Part shown: positions 1,382 to 38,415 of the stretch, piece after piece
Numbering within the stretch: the first letter of the stretch is position 1
Layout: each line of letters starts with the position of its first letter
Notes under the pieces: generated by a model
What the model was told of the DNA's origin: nothing
Database searches by the model: none
What the model saw: the letters and a program-made list of their open reading frames with translations, nothing else
Made by a program: the position numbers and the translations under genes
Source of the DNA: Candidatus Aquicultor sp.
GTDB lineage: Bacteria > Actinomycetota > Aquicultoria > Aquicultorales > Aquicultoraceae
Direction of reading: 5' to 3'
DNA: 64,000 bases
NCBI GenBank assembly: GCA_036504445.1
Contig: DASXVE010000025.1
Span: 62,001 to 126,000 of the forward strand

Positions 1382-1457
1382 TGGAGCCACTGAGCGGATT
1401 CGAACCGCTGACCTGCTCATTACGAGTGAGCTGCTCTGCCTGCTGAGCTACAGTGGC
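1382..1457 (-). tRNA. tRNA-Thr (anticodon CGT)
   Basis: A complete 76-nt cloverleaf including an encoded CCA end. Acceptor stem GCCACTG/CAGTGGC, D stem GCTC/GAGC, anticodon stem GCTCA/TGAGC with loop CTCGTAA (anticodon CGT, reads ACG), T stem AGCGG/CCGCT with loop TTCGAAT. The first 19 nt are repeated exactly at 4702-4720, so the gene is a likely border of the island to its right. Confidence 0.95.
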
Positions 1458-1720
1458 GCTTAACTATCGTTGCTGAGCTGCTAAAACAGTTTTAATCAGC
1501 GTAGATAGTGTAGCGTAAAATCCATCATTTTTGCAAGTTTGTTAGCACGCTGTTAGCACGAGATTAGCACTGTTTAAGCTCGTCACAGTACTTAAGACTT
1601 AGATATTATCTCTAAAATCGACACAATTGACAAGAGACGGATGGCGCTTTATGCTCGCGCAGTATGAGCCCAGAAGTCTGGATGACGGCCCTGCCCATAG
1701 AAAACTAGCGGGCAAGCAAT

Positions 1721-3172
1721 CTACCAATCATCTATACCGGAACGTATTATGTGAACGCCAAGCAAAAGAGCGGCTAAGTATGCTGTAGCCTGTAACCAGA
1801 ACAGCCCACCATCATTTGCGACCTCATCAAATTGGTTGTGTAAATAAATACCACTTTTGGAAAGCATAAAGCCTGCATATAGAACTAGAACGCCCCCAAA
1901 CAACTGTGCAAACAAGACGCCCTTCCGTCTTGACAGGAGTCGCGGTTTTCTCGCACTGTGTCTAGCTGCTCTAGGTTGTACATATGTTTGCTGAGCTGTT
2001 TGCACAATACTCGTTGTTGGCATGTGCATTTGTGACTGCACCTGTACCAGTGGTACTTTCTGTGGCAATTGGTACACATATTTTGCCGCAACAAGCTCAA
2101 TTTGTTGACCAGCTAAAAAAGGCTTCGGAAAGTAATCTTTCCCGAGACGCATTGAAGTATTACACCATGGGCAGTCACAAAGGTAATTTCCATACCAGTG
2201 ATATTCATTCTTGGAACATTGTTTTAGCTTTACGCCTTCAGCCTTCAAAGCATTAAACCACTCAATTGCCGCAGGCCTTTTCGTTGGATCTGCATGGCCT
2301 TCAACAAAACATCGGTAAAACAAAACCCTTATAGACGGCGGAATTATGTTATATGGAAGTGCGTAACTGGGCGGTTCGATGCCTCTAAGGTCTGTAGCAT
2401 ATGGGAAATACCCCTTCTTTATCTTTTCCTCAGGGGTTGGAGCATCATCAACGAGAGGGCCTTTTGCCTGATACGGATGCACGCCATTCGCTAAAAACTT
2501 GAACACTATGATACCTAGGGCAAACAAATCTGAGTAGTATCGGTCGTAATCGTTTGTCTTAAAATCTACACCCATCAATTCAGGAGGCAGGTACTCACCG
2601 CTTCCGACTCGAGTGTAATAAGTAATGCCCGATGCCCTATCTTTTACCTGGAACGAGTCACAATCGATTATCGCTACTAGGGCGCTCGGAGATACGAGAA
2701 TATTGGTTTCCCTTAAGTCTCCGATACGGTGCCCTTTCTCATGTAGCGCCGCAACCGCACTCACTATATTAAACGCTGCGGTAAACAAGTGCTGCCAGGT
2801 GAAGCTTCCACCAAACGCTTTTAGCCTATCGGAAGGGTCAAAATATTTGTGGGCTTCCTTAAACGTCTTTGTATCTATCAAAGGCATCGTATAGCCGACA
2901 AACCATGTTCTGGCTGGGTCGCTATAGAGAACGTCTTCCGGCCAACCGATTGATCGATACCTCGCATTAGGGGACGGATCATCTGGTGGGTTGTTCACCA
3001 TGCTTAATACTTTTTGGTGGAGTTCTGCGGTAACTTTTTGCGGATGATAAATTTTTGCACAGCTGCTATCACTGCCGATAATTTTGTAGATAGCCCCTTC
3101 GCCGCCGCTCTTGCTAGTACTTTTTAATCCAATTTCATTGCCCTTAAGGTCATAAACCGTACGAATTGGCAT
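1721..3172 (-). CDS. Protein kinase-like protein with C-terminal membrane helices (YegI/TerY-P kinase type)
   Basis: A divergent eukaryotic-type protein kinase of 483 residues. Seen: a glycine loop region GGEGAIYKI near residue 24, a catalytic-loop-like GDLRETNIL near 152 that keeps the Asp and Asn but not the HRD arginine, IIDCDSFQV in place of DFG, and an APE-like PPELMG. A Cys-rich patch (CSKNEYHWYGNYLCDCPWC) lies near 320-338, and two hydrophobic helices close the protein (about 425-447 and 460-478), so it is probably membrane bound. The ATG lies three bases after the phosphatase stop with an AAAGGA site inside that gene, so translation is probably coupled. Gene order vWA-PP2C-kinase matches the TerY-P triad described for Ter-linked stress systems and E. 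coli yegL-yegK-yegI. Function beyond that is unknown. Confidence 0.8.
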   Translation of the reverse strand: MPIRTVYDLKGNEIGLKSTSKSGGEGAIYKIIGSDSSCAKIYHPQKVTAELHQKVLSMVNNPPDDPSPNARYRSIGWPEDVLYSDPARTWFVGYTMPLIDTKTFKEAHKYFDPSDRLKAFGGSFTWQHLFTAAFNIVSAVAALHEKGHRIGDLRETNILVSPSALVAIIDCDSFQVKDRASGITYYTRVGSGEYLPPELMGVDFKTNDYDRYYSDLFALGIIVFKFLANGVHPYQAKGPLVDDAPTPEEKIKKGYFPYATDLRGIEPPSYALPYNIIPPSIRVLFYRCFVEGHADPTKRPAAIEWFNALKAEGVKLKQCSKNEYHWYGNYLCDCPWCNTSMRLGKDYFPKPFLAGQQIELVAAKYVYQLPQKVPLVQVQSQMHMPTTSIVQTAQQTYVQPRAARHSARKPRLLSRRKGVLFAQLFGGVLVLYAGFMLSKSGIYLHNQFDEVANDGGLFWLQATAYLAALLLGVHIIRSGIDDW

Positions 3173-3175
3173 TGG

Positions 3176-3934
3176 TTACATTCCTTTAGGTAGAATGCCA
3201 AGAACTAAGGTTTTATCATCCTCTGAATGCTCGCTGAGCTTATCGGATGCAAGTAAATCATAGATATCCTGGTTGGCCTGCTCAAAATCATCAATCTGTG
3301 CGGCATATTTAAAAAGCGGTCTAAAAAAGCCTTCGAACGGTGTGTAGCCGTTATCGGCTTTTTTCAAGCCGGCTCGTTGGCAGCCATCAGTAAACAGCGC
3401 AATACCATTGACACCGGAGACTGCCGATGTGCTCTTAAGCGACTTCTCCCAACCCTGGCTTGTCAGCGGTGTGACCTCATTTGTGTATTCGGATTCTCCC
3501 GGTCCCGTAATGAGCTGAAGACCATTATCCGTATCAATAACAAGCGCACCGTCCCCTATATGAACGGCTGCAACCGAATCCTTAAGGGTAATAGCGACGA
3601 GAAGTGTGCACGCTAAATCACGGAGGCTGCATTTTTCAGTTTCGGCTCTCTTCTCCAGCGCTCTCCTGGCCGCAATTACTGCATCTTTCGCTAGGGTTGT
3701 GATATCCACGCTTTCAGGTGTTGCTTTAGCAGCTCTTTCTACACTTTTTACAGCGCTTTTGACTGCTACGTTAGCTCCGATATCAGCTTTCGATGCACTA
3801 CCAAGCCCGTCTGCAATAGCGGCAACCGCAAAATCTTTGTCGATAGTCTTAAAAGCAAATGAATCTTGACACGGCATAGCTAACTGGACATGAAGCGGAC
3901 CTATAACCGAGGCACCAAAAAAAAATGTTTTCAA
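3176..3934 (-). CDS. PP2C-like serine/threonine phosphatase (YegK type)
   Basis: PPM-family phosphatase domain: QDSFAFKTIDKDFAVAAIADGLGSASKADIGA carries the N-terminal Asp metal ligand motif (ADGLGS), with GDGALV in the middle and a DDKTLVLG ending near the C-terminus. It would reverse the action of the adjacent kinase. The chosen start is TTG at 3934, preceded at six bases by AGGAGG and giving 252 residues; a longer reading would overlap the vWA gene. An ATG at 3938 sits in another frame and is separated from the domain by a run of nine A/T bases (3916-3924), so the start region is slippage-prone. Middle gene of the triad. Confidence 0.8.
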   Translation of the reverse strand: MKTFFFGASVIGPLHVQLAMPCQDSFAFKTIDKDFAVAAIADGLGSASKADIGANVAVKSAVKSVERAAKATPESVDITTLAKDAVIAARRALEKRAETEKCSLRDLACTLLVAITLKDSVAAVHIGDGALVIDTDNGLQLITGPGESEYTNEVTPLTSQGWEKSLKSTSAVSGVNGIALFTDGCQRAGLKKADNGYTPFEGFFRPLFKYAAQIDDFEQANQDIYDLLASDKLSEHSEDDKTLVLGILPKGM

Positions 3935-3951
3935 CCATATCCTCCTGTGCC

Positions 3952-4644
3952 TTATATTGTTGAGATCTCTGCCCATCCAGTTGGGCTGTCTAGTTGGACA
4001 TTTTCGCCGACTTTGGACGCCGATACTCTGCCTTGGCTTTTTGACAACCATTCGAACATAGCTTTAAACTTGCCGGGCATCAACCTTACAGGCGTTCGGT
4101 TTGAGGGCGAGAGCTGCTTTAGTGTGTCCATATCCGCCGGTTCGACTCCGACCGTAAAGAATAAGAAGTTCTTGTTATTCTCTCCGTCATTGATGCCTGC
4201 AATTACCTTATTCCAGATTGCATCGCCTGGTTGCATATCGGTAGGTTCTCCATCCGTGATCAAAAATATCCATGGGCGGTAGTAATCAATACCTCTACTC
4301 TTGTATTCAAGTTTACGTTCTTCAATTAAATCTATTGCTCTAAGAATGGCTTCACCCATAGGCGTTAAGCCTGAGGCAACTAATGTAGGCGGGTTAAACT
4401 GTTCCATTGATGAGAAGTCGTGGGTAACGGTTACGCCGTCGCCAAAGGTAATAATTGCTAAATCTACTCTTTTGCTTGCCAGCTCATCGGATGTGACATC
4501 CTCCTTGAAGAACCGTAAACCATCGTTAAGTTGCTTAATCTTGCTATTGACTACCATTGACCCTGATGTGTCGAGCAAAAGGACTGTGGCACAATGCGGA
4601 TGCTGGGGATTTGCAATTTCGATACTCTCTTCAAGCCTTGACAT
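3952..4644 (-). CDS. vWA-domain protein of the TerY/YegL type
   Basis: A single von Willebrand A domain of 230 residues. The MIDAS metal site is complete: DTSGSM near residue 24, a threonine in SGLTPMGEAI and an aspartate in LITDGEPTDM. Such proteins bind partners through a bound divalent metal. The ATG at 4644 is chosen because GGAGGA precedes it closely; upstream in-frame residues look non-coding. It is the first gene of the leftward triad with a PP2C phosphatase and a kinase. TerY-type vWA proteins are linked with tellurite-resistance-like (Ter) stress or phage-response systems, but no terC/D/Z gene is seen here. Confidence 0.85.
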   Translation of the reverse strand: MSRLEESIEIANPQHPHCATVLLLDTSGSMVVNSKIKQLNDGLRFFKEDVTSDELASKRVDLAIITFGDGVTVTHDFSSMEQFNPPTLVASGLTPMGEAILRAIDLIEERKLEYKSRGIDYYRPWIFLITDGEPTDMQPGDAIWNKVIAGINDGENNKNFLFFTVGVEPADMDTLKQLSPSNRTPVRLMPGKFKAMFEWLSKSQGRVSASKVGENVQLDSPTGWAEISTI

Positions 4645-4701
4645 AAATCCTCCTCGGTGGTTGCTTGCTACGTGGGATTCCAGTACTAATATACTAGACA
4701 A

Positions 4702-4720
4702 CCTGCTGAGCTACAGTGGC
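4702..4720. repeat. 19-bp exact copy of the tRNA-Thr 5' end (putative attachment site)
   Basis: The 19 bases are identical to 1439-1457, the first 19 nt of tRNA-Thr, in the same orientation. Looser similarity continues upstream of both copies (TCGTTG.TGA.CTGC just to the right). The triad lies between the copies and a truncated integrase lies just beyond, so this is most simply an att remnant. A remnant of a duplicated tRNA gene is the alternative. Confidence 0.6.
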
Positions 4721-4842
4721 ATGATGTGTGTTTCGTTGTTGAACTGCAATTTCTCTGTTTTGCTCTTGTCCGTGTCTGACCATATTTTACCACGTTTTCC
4801 GGTGTTTTGTGACCAAACTGTGACCACGTTACGACTTGCATC

Positions 4843-5091
4843 CTACACAGCCACCGCAGTTAAATCGGGCTGTCCCAGTCTTTCGATCACCGTTTTTTCC
4901 GTGCTCGGATAGAGATGCGCATACGTGTTGAGTGTGAATTGAACCGAGCTATGCCCGAGCTGCTTCGACACAAACAATATATTAGCACCCTTATCAATGA
5001 GCAAGCTGGCACAACTGTGCCGCAGATCATGAAAACGAAGGTTCTTGACTTTAGCAGATTTCCCGACATATTTAAAGAGCCGCAAAACCAA
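4843..5091 (-). pseudogene. Tyrosine recombinase/integrase, C-terminal remnant
   Basis: Only the end of the catalytic domain remains (82 residues): the HDLRHS box with the catalytic Arg, the LGHSS histidine and the active-site Tyr in TLNTYAHLYP. The N-terminal arm-binding and core-binding regions and the first catalytic Arg are missing. The left end lies about 120 bp from the tRNA-derived repeat, the usual place for an integrase. The frame runs on to the right through a terminator-like hairpin up to the broken chemoreceptor gene, which suggests a deletion fused the two. Two TGTGACCA repeats at 4808-4826 could be old arm sites. Confidence 0.85.
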
Positions 5092-5130
5092 AAGAGAGCC
5101 CGGGTGGTACCACCCTTTGGCTCTCTTTTT
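5090..5130. terminator. Strong bidirectional hairpin terminator
   Basis: Outer stem AAAAGAGAGCC/GGCTCTCTTTT and inner stem GGGTGG/CCACCC around TA, with a T run on the plus strand and TTTT on the minus strand. It overlaps the upstream part of the integrase remnant frame, supporting the view that this stretch is not integrase coding sequence. Confidence 0.7.
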
Positions 5131-5170
5131 ATAATAGACCTGTTCCAGGCCTATGTTAGCCAGGTAAAAC

Positions 5171-5644
5171 CTAGGCTAGCTTGTAACTGTTAATCAACTT
5201 GGCGATCTCACCGGTTGCGCTGGCACTTCGCTCGGCTAACTTACGAACCTCGTCGGCAACAACGGCGAAACCCTTGCCGTGCTCGCCTGCTCGCGCGGCC
5301 TCAATTGCCGCATTGAGCGCCAGCAGGTTTGTCTGGCTGGCTATATCATCGATAACGTCGATGATATCGTTAATGCCGTTGGTAAGCTCGGCAATGCTAT
5401 TGGTCTGGTCCTCAACGCTCTCAACAACACCGTTGATTGCTTGTGAGACGGTATCGACAGCGCCGACCGCTTTTACCGTTACGCCCGACTGATCGGACAC
5501 TCCTTTAGCAACCTGGCTAATTGCCGAAGCAACCTGGGTTGTCGAGGCTGAGATCTGATCTGCCATTTCGGCCAGGTCGCGAGATGAAACTGTCACCCGA
5601 TCAGCGACACCTCTAATCTTATCCAGCATGTCTTTCTCTTGCAC
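5171..5644 (-). pseudogene. Methyl-accepting chemotaxis protein, signalling-domain fragment
   Basis: The 157 residues are the coiled-coil signalling region of a chemoreceptor, including the conserved hairpin tip ([21 protein letters not shown], residues 103-123) followed by [18 protein letters not shown]. No sensor domain, membrane helices or HAMP precede it, no ribosome binding site is visible before its GTG, and the helix stops abruptly at a TAG where the integrase remnant frame begins. It is therefore a gene truncated at both ends, probably by the island's insertion and later deletion. Confidence 0.8.
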
Positions 5645-24011: not shown

Positions 24012-24048
24012 AAAAAGACACCAGCCCCCATACGGAAAAGCTGGTGTC
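24012..24048 (-). terminator. Rho-independent terminator inside the tupA leader
   Basis: Perfect stem GACACCAGC/GCTGGTGTC followed by TTTTT on the minus strand, placed right after the riboswitch-like element and about 360 bases before tupA. This is the layout of a transcription-terminating riboswitch. Confidence 0.8.
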
Positions 24049-24172
24049 GAAACCACAGCTCCTTTCCAAATACGGGAGGCTAACGCGTTTCCGCTTTAAC
24101 CCTGGCCGACGCCCTTCTCGGGGGTTCGACGCCCTCATCCCCTAGCATTGCCGTAGGGATTTCGGGTCGGAG
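24049..24172 (-). promoter_or_regulatory. Candidate Moco/Tuco-family riboswitch upstream of tupA
   Basis: The leader is rich in short stems, including GCG-GAAA-CGC (a GNRA tetraloop hairpin) and CTCC...GGAG around CGTATTTGGAAA, features reminiscent of the molybdenum/tungsten-cofactor RNA motif. It begins just after a -10 element and ends at an intrinsic terminator. Its context, ahead of a complete tungsten-pterin block, is what is known for Moco/Tuco RNAs. I assign the family from context and layout; an Rfam RF01055 covariance search was not run. Confidence 0.55.
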
Positions 24173-24200
24173 TCTATACGCTATGTAACATTATTTACAA
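24173..24200 (-). promoter_or_regulatory. Promoter for the tup/moa transcript
   Basis: On the minus strand TTGTAA, 16 bp, TATAGA; the start site would fall at the first bases of the riboswitch-like element. Confidence 0.45.
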
Positions 24201-36722: not shown

Positions 36723-37016
36723 TTCGGTCTCCCAGTGTTGTATCCCATAATGACGGAATACTCTAATATTATATATCGGCAATTTTGCAAGGTTTAAAAC
36801 AGCAAAAGTGTGGTAATGGGCGGGAATAAGCTATAATTATTGCTTATAATCTGTTTGTCTTGATGATTTTATATTAGATGATTTTTACTAGATTAGCAAG
36901 AAATGTTGACAAAAAGTATAAGAAATGTAAACATTTCTTTACTATTGCCAGGCTATCAGGGATTATAAGTATTTATAATAATGGCTTTTCTGCGGTTTCT
37001 CTAGAGGTGGTAATAA

Positions 37017-37971
37017 TGCCTATCCGTATATTCGGAAGTCATGGGGTAGTAAACTTAACGACACCAGAGGAAATTCTTAAGCTCTGGTTAAGTGACTACA
37101 TTGAGCCACGCATACAAACGAGCTCGCTTAAGCGCTCTACCTTTATCCGCTATGAGGGCATACTTAATAACTATCTACTTCCCCACTTTGGTAAATGTAA
37201 CCTGGTAAGTATCACACCGTCGATGATTCAGAAATTTCTATCGGGCAATATAAAAGAGGGTGAACTTGGCAACGGCTCGCTTAGAACCATACTTATAGTG
37301 CTAAATACAATCTTCGCTAGGGCGATTAAGTTTGGGTACTTGAAACAAAACCCGGCAAAAGAGATCGAGCGCCCAAAACTTGAAAACAAAGAAACGTACA
37401 TCTTAACACCACAAGAAATACGCTAGCTCTTGGAAAAGGCAGAAGAGCCATATAAGACGTTGTTTACCGTGCTATTATGACCGGGTATAGGCGCGGTGAA
37501 ATCTTAGGCTTTAAAGTGGGCTGATATTGATTTTGAGCGCAATTTAATCTTTGTGCGACGGCTCATCGCAGCGAGTTCTCCGAGCCTAAATCGAAACACA
37601 GCATCCGGGTTCTAGCTATGGATGATCGTTTAGCCTCTTCCCTTTTCAACCATAAATTAACAGCACCAGCAAACGAGCATGATCTTGTATTTTGCACTCC
37701 TGAGGGTGGCATTATAGACGGCGGCCATATTACCAAGGTAGCGTTTAAGAAGGCGCTAAAAGATGCTGGTATAGAAAAGCATATCCGCTTTCACGACCTC
37801 CGGCATAGCTTCGCAAGCCTCTTGATCTATAAGGGTGAGCGCCCGAAAGTTATTCAATCCATCATGGATCACGCAAATATCACAACCACAATGAACATTT
37901 ATGGTCACTTAATGCCCGAAACCCACGTTGAAAGCGCTGCTAAGGTATCCTCTGCAATATTTGATGAGTAG
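37017..37971 (+). pseudogene. Tyrosine recombinase/integrase with several disruptions
   Basis: The N-terminal half (from ATG 37017) has the core-binding domain (SSLKRSTFIRYEGILNNYLLPHFGK) and ends at an in-frame TAG (37423-37425). The following 190 bases keep integrase-like words (TGYRRGEILG, LKWADIDFERNLIFVRR) in shifting frames, so at least three frameshifts add to the nonsense codon. The C-terminal half keeps HDLRHSFASLL, the DHANITTT histidine and the NIYGHLMP tyrosine. It lies next to tRNA-Sec and once moved this island. Confidence 0.88.
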
Positions 37972-37989
37972 TGTTTTTGATAACTACTT

Positions 37990-38142
37990 TTACTTGTATA
38001 TCTTTAGAATAGCTTTATCAAAAACCTCTTTCATCGGCTTATTCTCATCGAACCAAACGCATTTGGCACCAACTTCGGTGACTGTCATAAGAGGTCCGCC
38101 ACTCTTCAACATAACCACATCGCCTTTTTTAATTTCTTCCAT
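37990..38142 (-). CDS. YodC-like small protein (DUF2158)
   Basis: 50 residues, MEEIKKGDVVMLKSGGPLMTVTEVG...CVWFDENKPMKEVF. KGDVVxLKSGGPxMTV and C-WF are the DUF2158/YodC pattern, of unknown function. GAGGAGGAG precedes ATG 38142. Lies between the broken integrase and tRNA-Sec, inside the island. Confidence 0.8.
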   Translation of the reverse strand: MEEIKKGDVVMLKSGGPLMTVTEVGAKCVWFDENKPMKEVFDKAILKIYK

Positions 38143-38255
38143 AGCTATCTCCTCCTCTCTTCTACGTTGTATATATTCGACATAGATAATTGAACTCCTT
38201 CTGCTGCTATGCCTAACCTGGGCTTACCAAAAATGTATTTCATTAGAAGATACGT

Positions 38256-38288
38256 AAAAAGCACCAGTATTTTACGCTGGTGCTTTTA
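38256..38288 (-). terminator. Terminator downstream of tRNA-Sec
   Basis: Eleven-base stem AAAAGCACCAG/CTGGTGCTTTT around a nine-base loop, 33 bases past the tRNA 3' end; A/T runs flank both sides. Confidence 0.75.
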
Positions 38289-38319
38289 AGTTTTACCTGT
38301 TAAATACAGGTTTATACTT

Positions 38320-38415
38320 TGGCGGAGGTGCGTGGGAATCGAACCCACCAACCGAGGTTTAACCCGGCCGACTGGTTTTGAAGACCAGCTGAGCCACCAG
38401 GCCCAATCCACCTCC
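38320..38415 (-). tRNA. selC: tRNA-Sec (anticodon TCA)
   Basis: A 96-nt selenocysteine tRNA with encoded GCCA end. Acceptor GGAGGTG/CACCTCC, six-base D stem TGGGCC/GGCTCA with a four-base loop, anticodon stem CTGGT/ACCAG with loop CTTCAAA, a long variable arm (about eight pairs with wobbles) and T arm GTGGG/CCCAC. The eighth acceptor pair expected in bacterial tRNA-Sec would be G-G here, a mismatch. It reads UGA with SelB. Its 3' end is the island attachment site. Confidence 0.93.

What the first reader, a model, noticed from the sequence alone, without database searches (positions are those of the whole stretch)
1382..4720. vWA-PP2C-kinase (TerY-P-like) triad bracketed by tRNA-Thr and a copy of its 5' end
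Seen: three tightly packed genes (vWA with full MIDAS, PP2C, divergent kinase with two C-terminal helices) between tRNA-Thr and an exact 19-bp copy of the tRNA 5' end, with an integrase remnant just outside. Known: this gene trio is the TerY-P/yegL-yegK-yegI set linked to stress and suspected phage response. Inference: a mobile defence or stress island, unusual in using the 5' rather than the 3' end of a tRNA.
Basis: partly seen in the sequence, partly recalled or inferred. Interest (0 to 1): 0.7.

Follow-up and report, generated by a model that had tools for sequence, protein, structure and literature searches.

The report
Defence-gene trio on tRNA-5'-end mobile element
A three-gene kinase/phosphatase/vWA set, known elsewhere as a stress and anti-phage module, sits here on the remains of a mobile element that could insert itself into the front end of a tRNA gene (most such elements use the back end), and the same set has been passed between related genera.

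Summary
In detail: tRNA-Thr(CGT), an exact 19-bp copy of its 5' end (the only second copy in the genome), an intact vWA-PP2C-kinase triad and an integrase C-terminal remnant are present. Relatives show what the copy is. In all five triad loci found in the family, at three kinds of genomic place, a tRNA-5'-like core lies 57-58 bp before vWA. In four of them it is directly preceded by 11-bp-spaced repeats, the arm-site layout found beside related intact integrases. In relative G005 the unit is circularly permuted around the core and integrated between PSP1 and tRNA-Thr (PSP1-core-triad-int'-arm-core/tRNA). Three relatives have PSP1 beside the tRNA without an insert. So the triad is cargo of an integrative element whose attB is the tRNA-Thr 5' end, and synonymous divergence shows transfer between genera. 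The window copy is a fossil: its integrase is broken, its attP lies at the 19-bp copy, and the tRNA carries arm repeats of another related element. The two 19-bp copies are probably not attL/attR of one event. The triad is a zinc-ribbon TerY-P module; in G006 it abuts Vsr/R-M/Dsr1 genes. Both parts are known kinds; 5'-end use is uncommon.

The parts
1382..1457 (-). tRNA-Thr(CGT); nt 1-19 (1439-1457) are the attB core
1541..1569 (-). arm B: three direct repeats TGCTAAY, 11-bp period, 90-112 bp upstream of the tRNA; integrase arm sites of a related 5'-end element
   Evidence: inference as to function
1605..1633 (-). promoter-like TTGTCA-17-GATAAT, homologous to the tRNA-Thr upstream region of G003/G006/G008
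1640..1670 (-). remnant of the middle of the integrase (LREHKA..), directly after the kinase gene
   Evidence: by comparison with G005, G003 and full-length integrases
1721..3172 (-). Ser/Thr kinase, zinc ribbon, two C-terminal hydrophobic helices (483 aa)
3176..3976 (-). PP2C phosphatase (start chosen by homology to G005)
3952..4644 (-). vWA protein with full MIDAS (230 aa)
4702..4720 (-). exact copy of tRNA-Thr nt 1-19; core of the unit's attP
4784..4813 (-). promoter-like GTCACA-18-TAAAAT with TG before the -10, inside arm A
   Evidence: consensus match only
4809..4826 (-). arm A: two direct repeats TGGTCAC, 11-bp period, 95 and 106 bp upstream of the core
4843..5085 (-). C-terminal remnant of the tyrosine integrase

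Best explanation
The triad is cargo of a small integrative element, ordered on a circle as core - vWA - PP2C - kinase - integrase - arm repeats - core. Its tyrosine integrase recombined the attP core with the first 19 bp of tRNA-Thr. Integration at the 5' end leaves a whole tRNA gene but exchanges promoters: the element's arm promoter then reads the tRNA, and the old tRNA upstream region reads the triad. G005 holds this integrated form. The window, G003, G006 and G008 hold integrase-dead cassettes in which arm-core-triad is still contiguous; in the window the cassette lies just upstream of tRNA-Thr, whose 5' flank also carries the arm of a second, related element. The triad itself most likely acts as a TerY-P phosphorylation switch in stress or phage defence: the vWA protein senses or scaffolds, the kinase phosphorylates, PP2C resets. 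Shown: the gene set, the att architecture, the permutation, the empty sites, the horizontal transfer. Inferred: promoter exchange, defence role, and how the window cassette reached its place.
For: Circular permutation of window versus G005 around the core, with PSP1-core-triad-int'-arm-core/tRNA in G005 and PSP1 next to the tRNA in G002, G004, G007. Arm repeats at 106/95 bp from the core in window, G005, G003 and G001, 105/94 in G008. The same 11-bp-period repeats occur beside intact homologous integrases at tRNA ends and after most viral homologues. An arm + tRNA-5' pattern matched only three places in 36 genomes, all at this core (window tRNA, window copy, G001 tRNA-Thr), with no control match. 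Arm A scar upstream of tRNA-Thr in G009. Triad fourfold-site identity 0.69-0.80 between genera versus 0.40-0.57 for neighbouring core genes. dN/dS 0.02-0.30. Triad beside Vsr, methyltransferase, restriction enzyme and split Dsr1 in G006. TerY-P literature: PMC11090510, PMC7699616.
Against: No genome examined holds an intact integrase with the triad; the N-terminal part is missing in window, G005 and G003, so recent movement must have been in trans or by other recombination. Only one genome (G005, a draft assembly) shows the clean integrated form. How the permuted cassettes reached non-tRNA sites is not explained. The promoters are consensus matches only. PADLOC matches for the triad are weak (TerY E 2e-4; kinase to other defence kinases).
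Confidence: 0.78

Rival explanations
1. Simple bracket: in the window itself the triad element is integrated at the tRNA-Thr 5' end, the two 19-bp copies are its attL and attR, arm B is its own diverged arm, and int(C)-arm A is left over from an earlier tandem element.
For: Same order as G005 (core-triad-int'-arm-core/tRNA); arm B lies at the expected distance.
Against: A promoter-like stretch homologous to relatives' tRNA-Thr upstream region (z 14-18) lies between triad and arm B, where element DNA is expected; arm B shows no clear similarity to arm A (P 0.03-0.16) but does to the G001 arm (z 6); arm A-core-triad are also joined in G003, G006 and G008, away from the tRNA.
Confidence: 0.25
2. 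The triad is an old resident operon whose 5' leader resembles a tRNA 5' half because it uses it for regulation (tRNA mimic or shared promoter), not because of integration.
For: The position 57-58 bp before the vWA start is conserved, and the upstream region holds a conserved extended -10.
Against: The 19-mer decays to 17/19 and 15/19 away from the tRNA while vWA stays 89-91% identical; arm repeats and integrase remnants need site-specific recombination; the upstream region of the leader in G005 is unrelated; the triad is horizontally acquired.
Confidence: 0.05
3. The 19-bp copy is the remnant of a decayed tandem tRNA-Thr gene.
For: It starts exactly at tRNA nt 1.
Against: The sequence after the copy has no similarity to tRNA nt 20-76 (shuffles reach the score in 68-97% of trials in four genomes); the same junction recurs at several genomic places.
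Confidence: 0.03

Closest known systems
TerY-P triad (TerY-like vWA, PP2C, Ser/Thr kinase with C-terminal zinc ribbon; PMC11090510 citing Anantharaman 2012; anti-phage TerY-P of Gao 2020 as reported in PMC7699616)
   Same: Same three genes in the same order as in 70 of 80 named loci, MIDAS, zinc ribbon, linkage to restriction genes in G006.
   Different: Two added C-terminal hydrophobic helices on the kinase; not next to ter genes in the window; stands alone as cargo of a 5'-end tRNA element. The Gao form has an OB-fold instead of a zinc ribbon (PMC11090510).
5'-half tRNA integrating elements (archaeal pTN3-like, PMC8371274; 9 of 88 tRNA-linked phage-related sequences of Sinorhizobium meliloti, PMC11476347)
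   Same: attB is the 5' part of a tRNA gene, the whole tRNA is restored, and the tRNA falls under an element promoter.
   Different: Bacterial; a short 3.2-3.5-kb cassette with a broken integrase; relatives of this integrase mostly lie at tRNA 3' ends.
Canonical 3'-end tRNA element in G005 at the same tRNA-Thr (L053 1713-7741, Prim-Pol and P4-type integrase)
   Same: Tyrosine integrase; a displaced tRNA fragment marks the far end (48-bp 3' copy).
   Different: Uses the 3' end; integrase with Arm-DNA-bind_3, larger cargo.

Membership tests
TerY-P triad | adjacent TerY-like vWA, PP2C and Ser/Thr kinase genes | tested here: met
   PADLOC TerY match is weak (E 2e-4)
TerY-P triad | kinase fused to a C-terminal zinc ribbon | tested here: met
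   C319/H325/C334/C337 motif invariant in five kinases; read from sequence, no domain model hit
TerY-P triad | link to ter, restriction or DNA-processing genes | tested here: met
   G006 only: Vsr, methyltransferase, REase, Dsr1 next to the kinase; none beside it in the window
TerY-P triad | anti-phage or stress phenotype | not testable with these tools
   needs an experiment
tRNA-targeting integrative element (5' end) | direct repeat of a tRNA end flanking the insert, whole tRNA kept | tested here: met
   G005 cleanly; window has the repeat but probably not from one event
tRNA-targeting integrative element (5' end) | empty site in relatives | tested here: met
   PSP1 next to tRNA-Thr in G002, G004, G007
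tRNA-targeting integrative element (5' end) | integrase with arm sites beside the core | tested here: met
   arm repeats and integrase C-terminus beside the core
tRNA-targeting integrative element (5' end) | functional integrase / ability to excise | tested here: not met
   N-terminal two thirds missing in window, G005, G003; so it is a derivative or fossil of such an element, not an active one

The most novel reading that the evidence does not exclude
A non-autonomous, roughly 3.4-kb, integrase-dead defence cassette keeps an attP with an embedded promoter and moves between genera in trans through the tRNA-Thr 5' end; integration swaps promoters and puts a phage-defence switch under tRNA-gene transcription, while an unrelated element can occupy the 3' end of the same tRNA.
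Probability: 0.2. Interest if true: 0.65.

Novelty: new variant of a known kind. Interest (0 to 1): 0.45.

Why it matters
It gives a clear comparative case in bacteria of an integrase family that mostly lies at tRNA 3' ends having used the 5' end, which obliges the element to supply the tRNA promoter. It also shows how TerY-P modules, whose gene associations are known but whose movement is little documented, can travel between genera as a minimal cassette.

Tried and rejected
Decayed tandem tRNA: rejected. Vertical inheritance: rejected by fourfold-site comparison. Phage or plasmid carriers: no triad relative in viral contigs with the patterns used and only weak cyanobacterial vWA matches in plasmids. 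The two viral contigs holding the exact 19-mer carry complete, unrelated tRNA-Thr(TGT) genes. The idea that the tRNA promoters of G002/G004/G007 are scars of arm A was borderline or not significant and is not claimed. Triad-tRNA association elsewhere: only 3 of 80 named loci have a tRNA within 5 kb of vWA, so it is not a general feature. The PP2C figures used a wrong frame and are replaced. Solved structures gave only generic kinases and no vWA match. No structure prediction was run. The organism was not identified by name.

Full report
OBSERVATION. Genome-wide, with up to two mismatches, the 19-mer occurs only at these two sites. An 82-aa integrase C-terminal remnant lies at 4843-5091(-).

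THE COPY BELONGS TO THE TRIAD UNIT. Five genomes of the family carry this triad. In the window, G005, G003 and G008 a tRNA-5'-like 19-mer (19/19, 18/19, 17/19, 17/19) lies 57-58 bp before the vWA start, and in G006 a 15/19 version lies at the corresponding place. In G003 and G006 the triad and tRNA-Thr lie far apart, and in G008 on different contigs, so the 19-mer travels with the triad and is not simply a relic left beside the tRNA.

CIRCULAR PERMUTATION. Window order on the gene strand is int(C)-arm-core-vWA-PP2C-kinase-int(mid). In G005 it is PSP1-core-vWA-PP2C-kinase-int(mid)-int(C)-arm-core, followed by the rest of tRNA-Thr. blastn shows the two as permutations of one unit: 89% over core and triad, 85% over the 129-bp arm and core, 84% over the integrase piece. 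Crossover between an attP (arm-core-vWA) and tRNA-Thr nt 1-19 produces exactly this. G002, G004 and G007 have PSP1 next to the tRNA with nothing between; these are empty sites.

ARM SITES. Upstream of the core are direct repeats with an 11-bp period: TGGTCAC twice, at 106 and 95 bp. The same distances hold for G005, G003 and, with different repeat letters (TGGTAAC/TGGTTAC), G001; G008 has 105/94; the window tRNA has three copies of TGCTAAY at 112/101/90. The triple repeat was not reached in 2000 shuffles; the single pairs alone are only weakly significant (P 0.02-0.13). The weight lies in the constant distance and in the class-wide search: an arm + tRNA-5' pattern matched three places in 36 genomes (window tRNA, window copy, G001 tRNA-Thr), with no match of the control pattern. 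Intact or nearly intact integrases of this family in related genomes lie beside tRNA 3' ends in most cases and have such repeats roughly 75-100 bp from the tRNA; most viral homologues show them right after the integrase. The window itself has a decayed integrase of this family facing the 3' end of tRNA-SeC. So this integrase family mostly lies at 3' ends, and here the 5' end was used.

WHAT HAPPENED IN THE WINDOW. The window is not a clean copy of G005. A promoter-like stretch homologous to the tRNA-Thr upstream region of G003 and G006 (z 14-18) separates triad from tRNA, and the repeats nearest the tRNA (arm B) sit in sequence that resembles the G001 arm (z 6) rather than arm A. I read two layers: a 5'-end integration by a related element that left arm B, and the triad cassette, opened within its integrase gene, lying just upstream. 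A tandem reading in which arm B is the triad element's own arm remains possible and is listed as a rival. The N-terminal two thirds of the integrase are missing in window, G005 and G003, so the cassette probably lost autonomy before these copies separated; later movement needs help in trans or another kind of recombination.

HORIZONTAL TRANSFER. Fourfold-site identity between window and G005 is 0.80 for vWA and kinase but 0.40-0.55 for PSP1, holB and tmk; between window and G003 it is 0.69-0.76 against 0.44-0.57. Inside genus g4 the relation reverses: G006 triad genes are more diverged from G003/G008 (vWA and kinase 0.52-0.68) than most core genes are (0.72-0.83), implying separate acquisitions. 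dN/dS of 0.02-0.30 shows that the proteins are kept functional.

FUNCTION. The kinase has its catalytic residues, a zinc-ribbon motif and two hydrophobic C-terminal stretches; the vWA protein has a full MIDAS. This matches the TerY-P triad as defined in PMC11090510. Anti-phage activity of TerY-P-like modules is reported in PMC11090510 and PMC7699616. The trio in the same order occurs in 70 of 80 named loci from Cyanobacteria, Verrucomicrobia, Nitrospirae, archaea and others. In G006 the kinase gene is followed directly by Vsr, a DNA methyltransferase, a type II restriction enzyme and a split Dsr1. A defence or stress switch is therefore the best guess, by family and context only.

WHAT IS KNOWN. 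5'-half tRNA integration is described for pTN3-like archaeal elements, with the tRNA then read from an element promoter, and as seldom met in bacteria (PMC8371274); in S. meliloti 9 of 88 tRNA-associated phage-related sequences used the 5' end (PMC11476347). The finding is thus a new variant of known kinds: a TerY-P cassette on a 5'-end tRNA element.

VERDICT. Observation confirmed; interpretation partly supported; interest 0.45.

Noticed in passing
window 36878-38415: Decayed integrase of the same family (pieces at 36878-37426 and 37618-37971, +) facing the 3' end of tRNA-SeC; G003 has a longer version at its tRNA-SeC. A canonical 3'-end case in the same window.
   Followed up: partly
window about 5088-5132 (-): T-box-like antiterminator/terminator piece (AGAGAGCCAAAGGGTGGTACCACCCGGGCTCTCTTTT) directly before the integrase remnant; no Rfam hit, the rest of a T-box leader is absent.
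   Followed up: no
window 5171-5644 (-): Truncated chemotaxis signalling domain (MCPsignal) between PSP1 and the integrase remnant; a related piece lies near tRNA-Thr in G009.
   Followed up: no
L053 1713-7741 (G005): The same tRNA-Thr is used at both ends: a 3'-end element with Prim-Pol and P4-type integrase, marked by a 48-bp copy of tRNA nt 29-76, lies on its other side. Shorter 3' copies lie near tRNA-Thr in G007 and G009.
   Followed up: partly
L056 2025-9169 (G006): Defence island after the triad: Vsr, methyltransferase, type II restriction enzyme, and Dsr1 split into two ORFs.
   Followed up: partly
L064 6944-8797 (G009): Two cell-wall hydrolase-like genes, on the opposite strand, lie between PSP1 and tRNA-Thr with an arm A scar: possibly other cargo of the same 5'-end element family.
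   Followed up: partly
window 24043-24184 (-): Moco (molybdenum/tungsten cofactor) riboswitch by Rfam.
   Followed up: no
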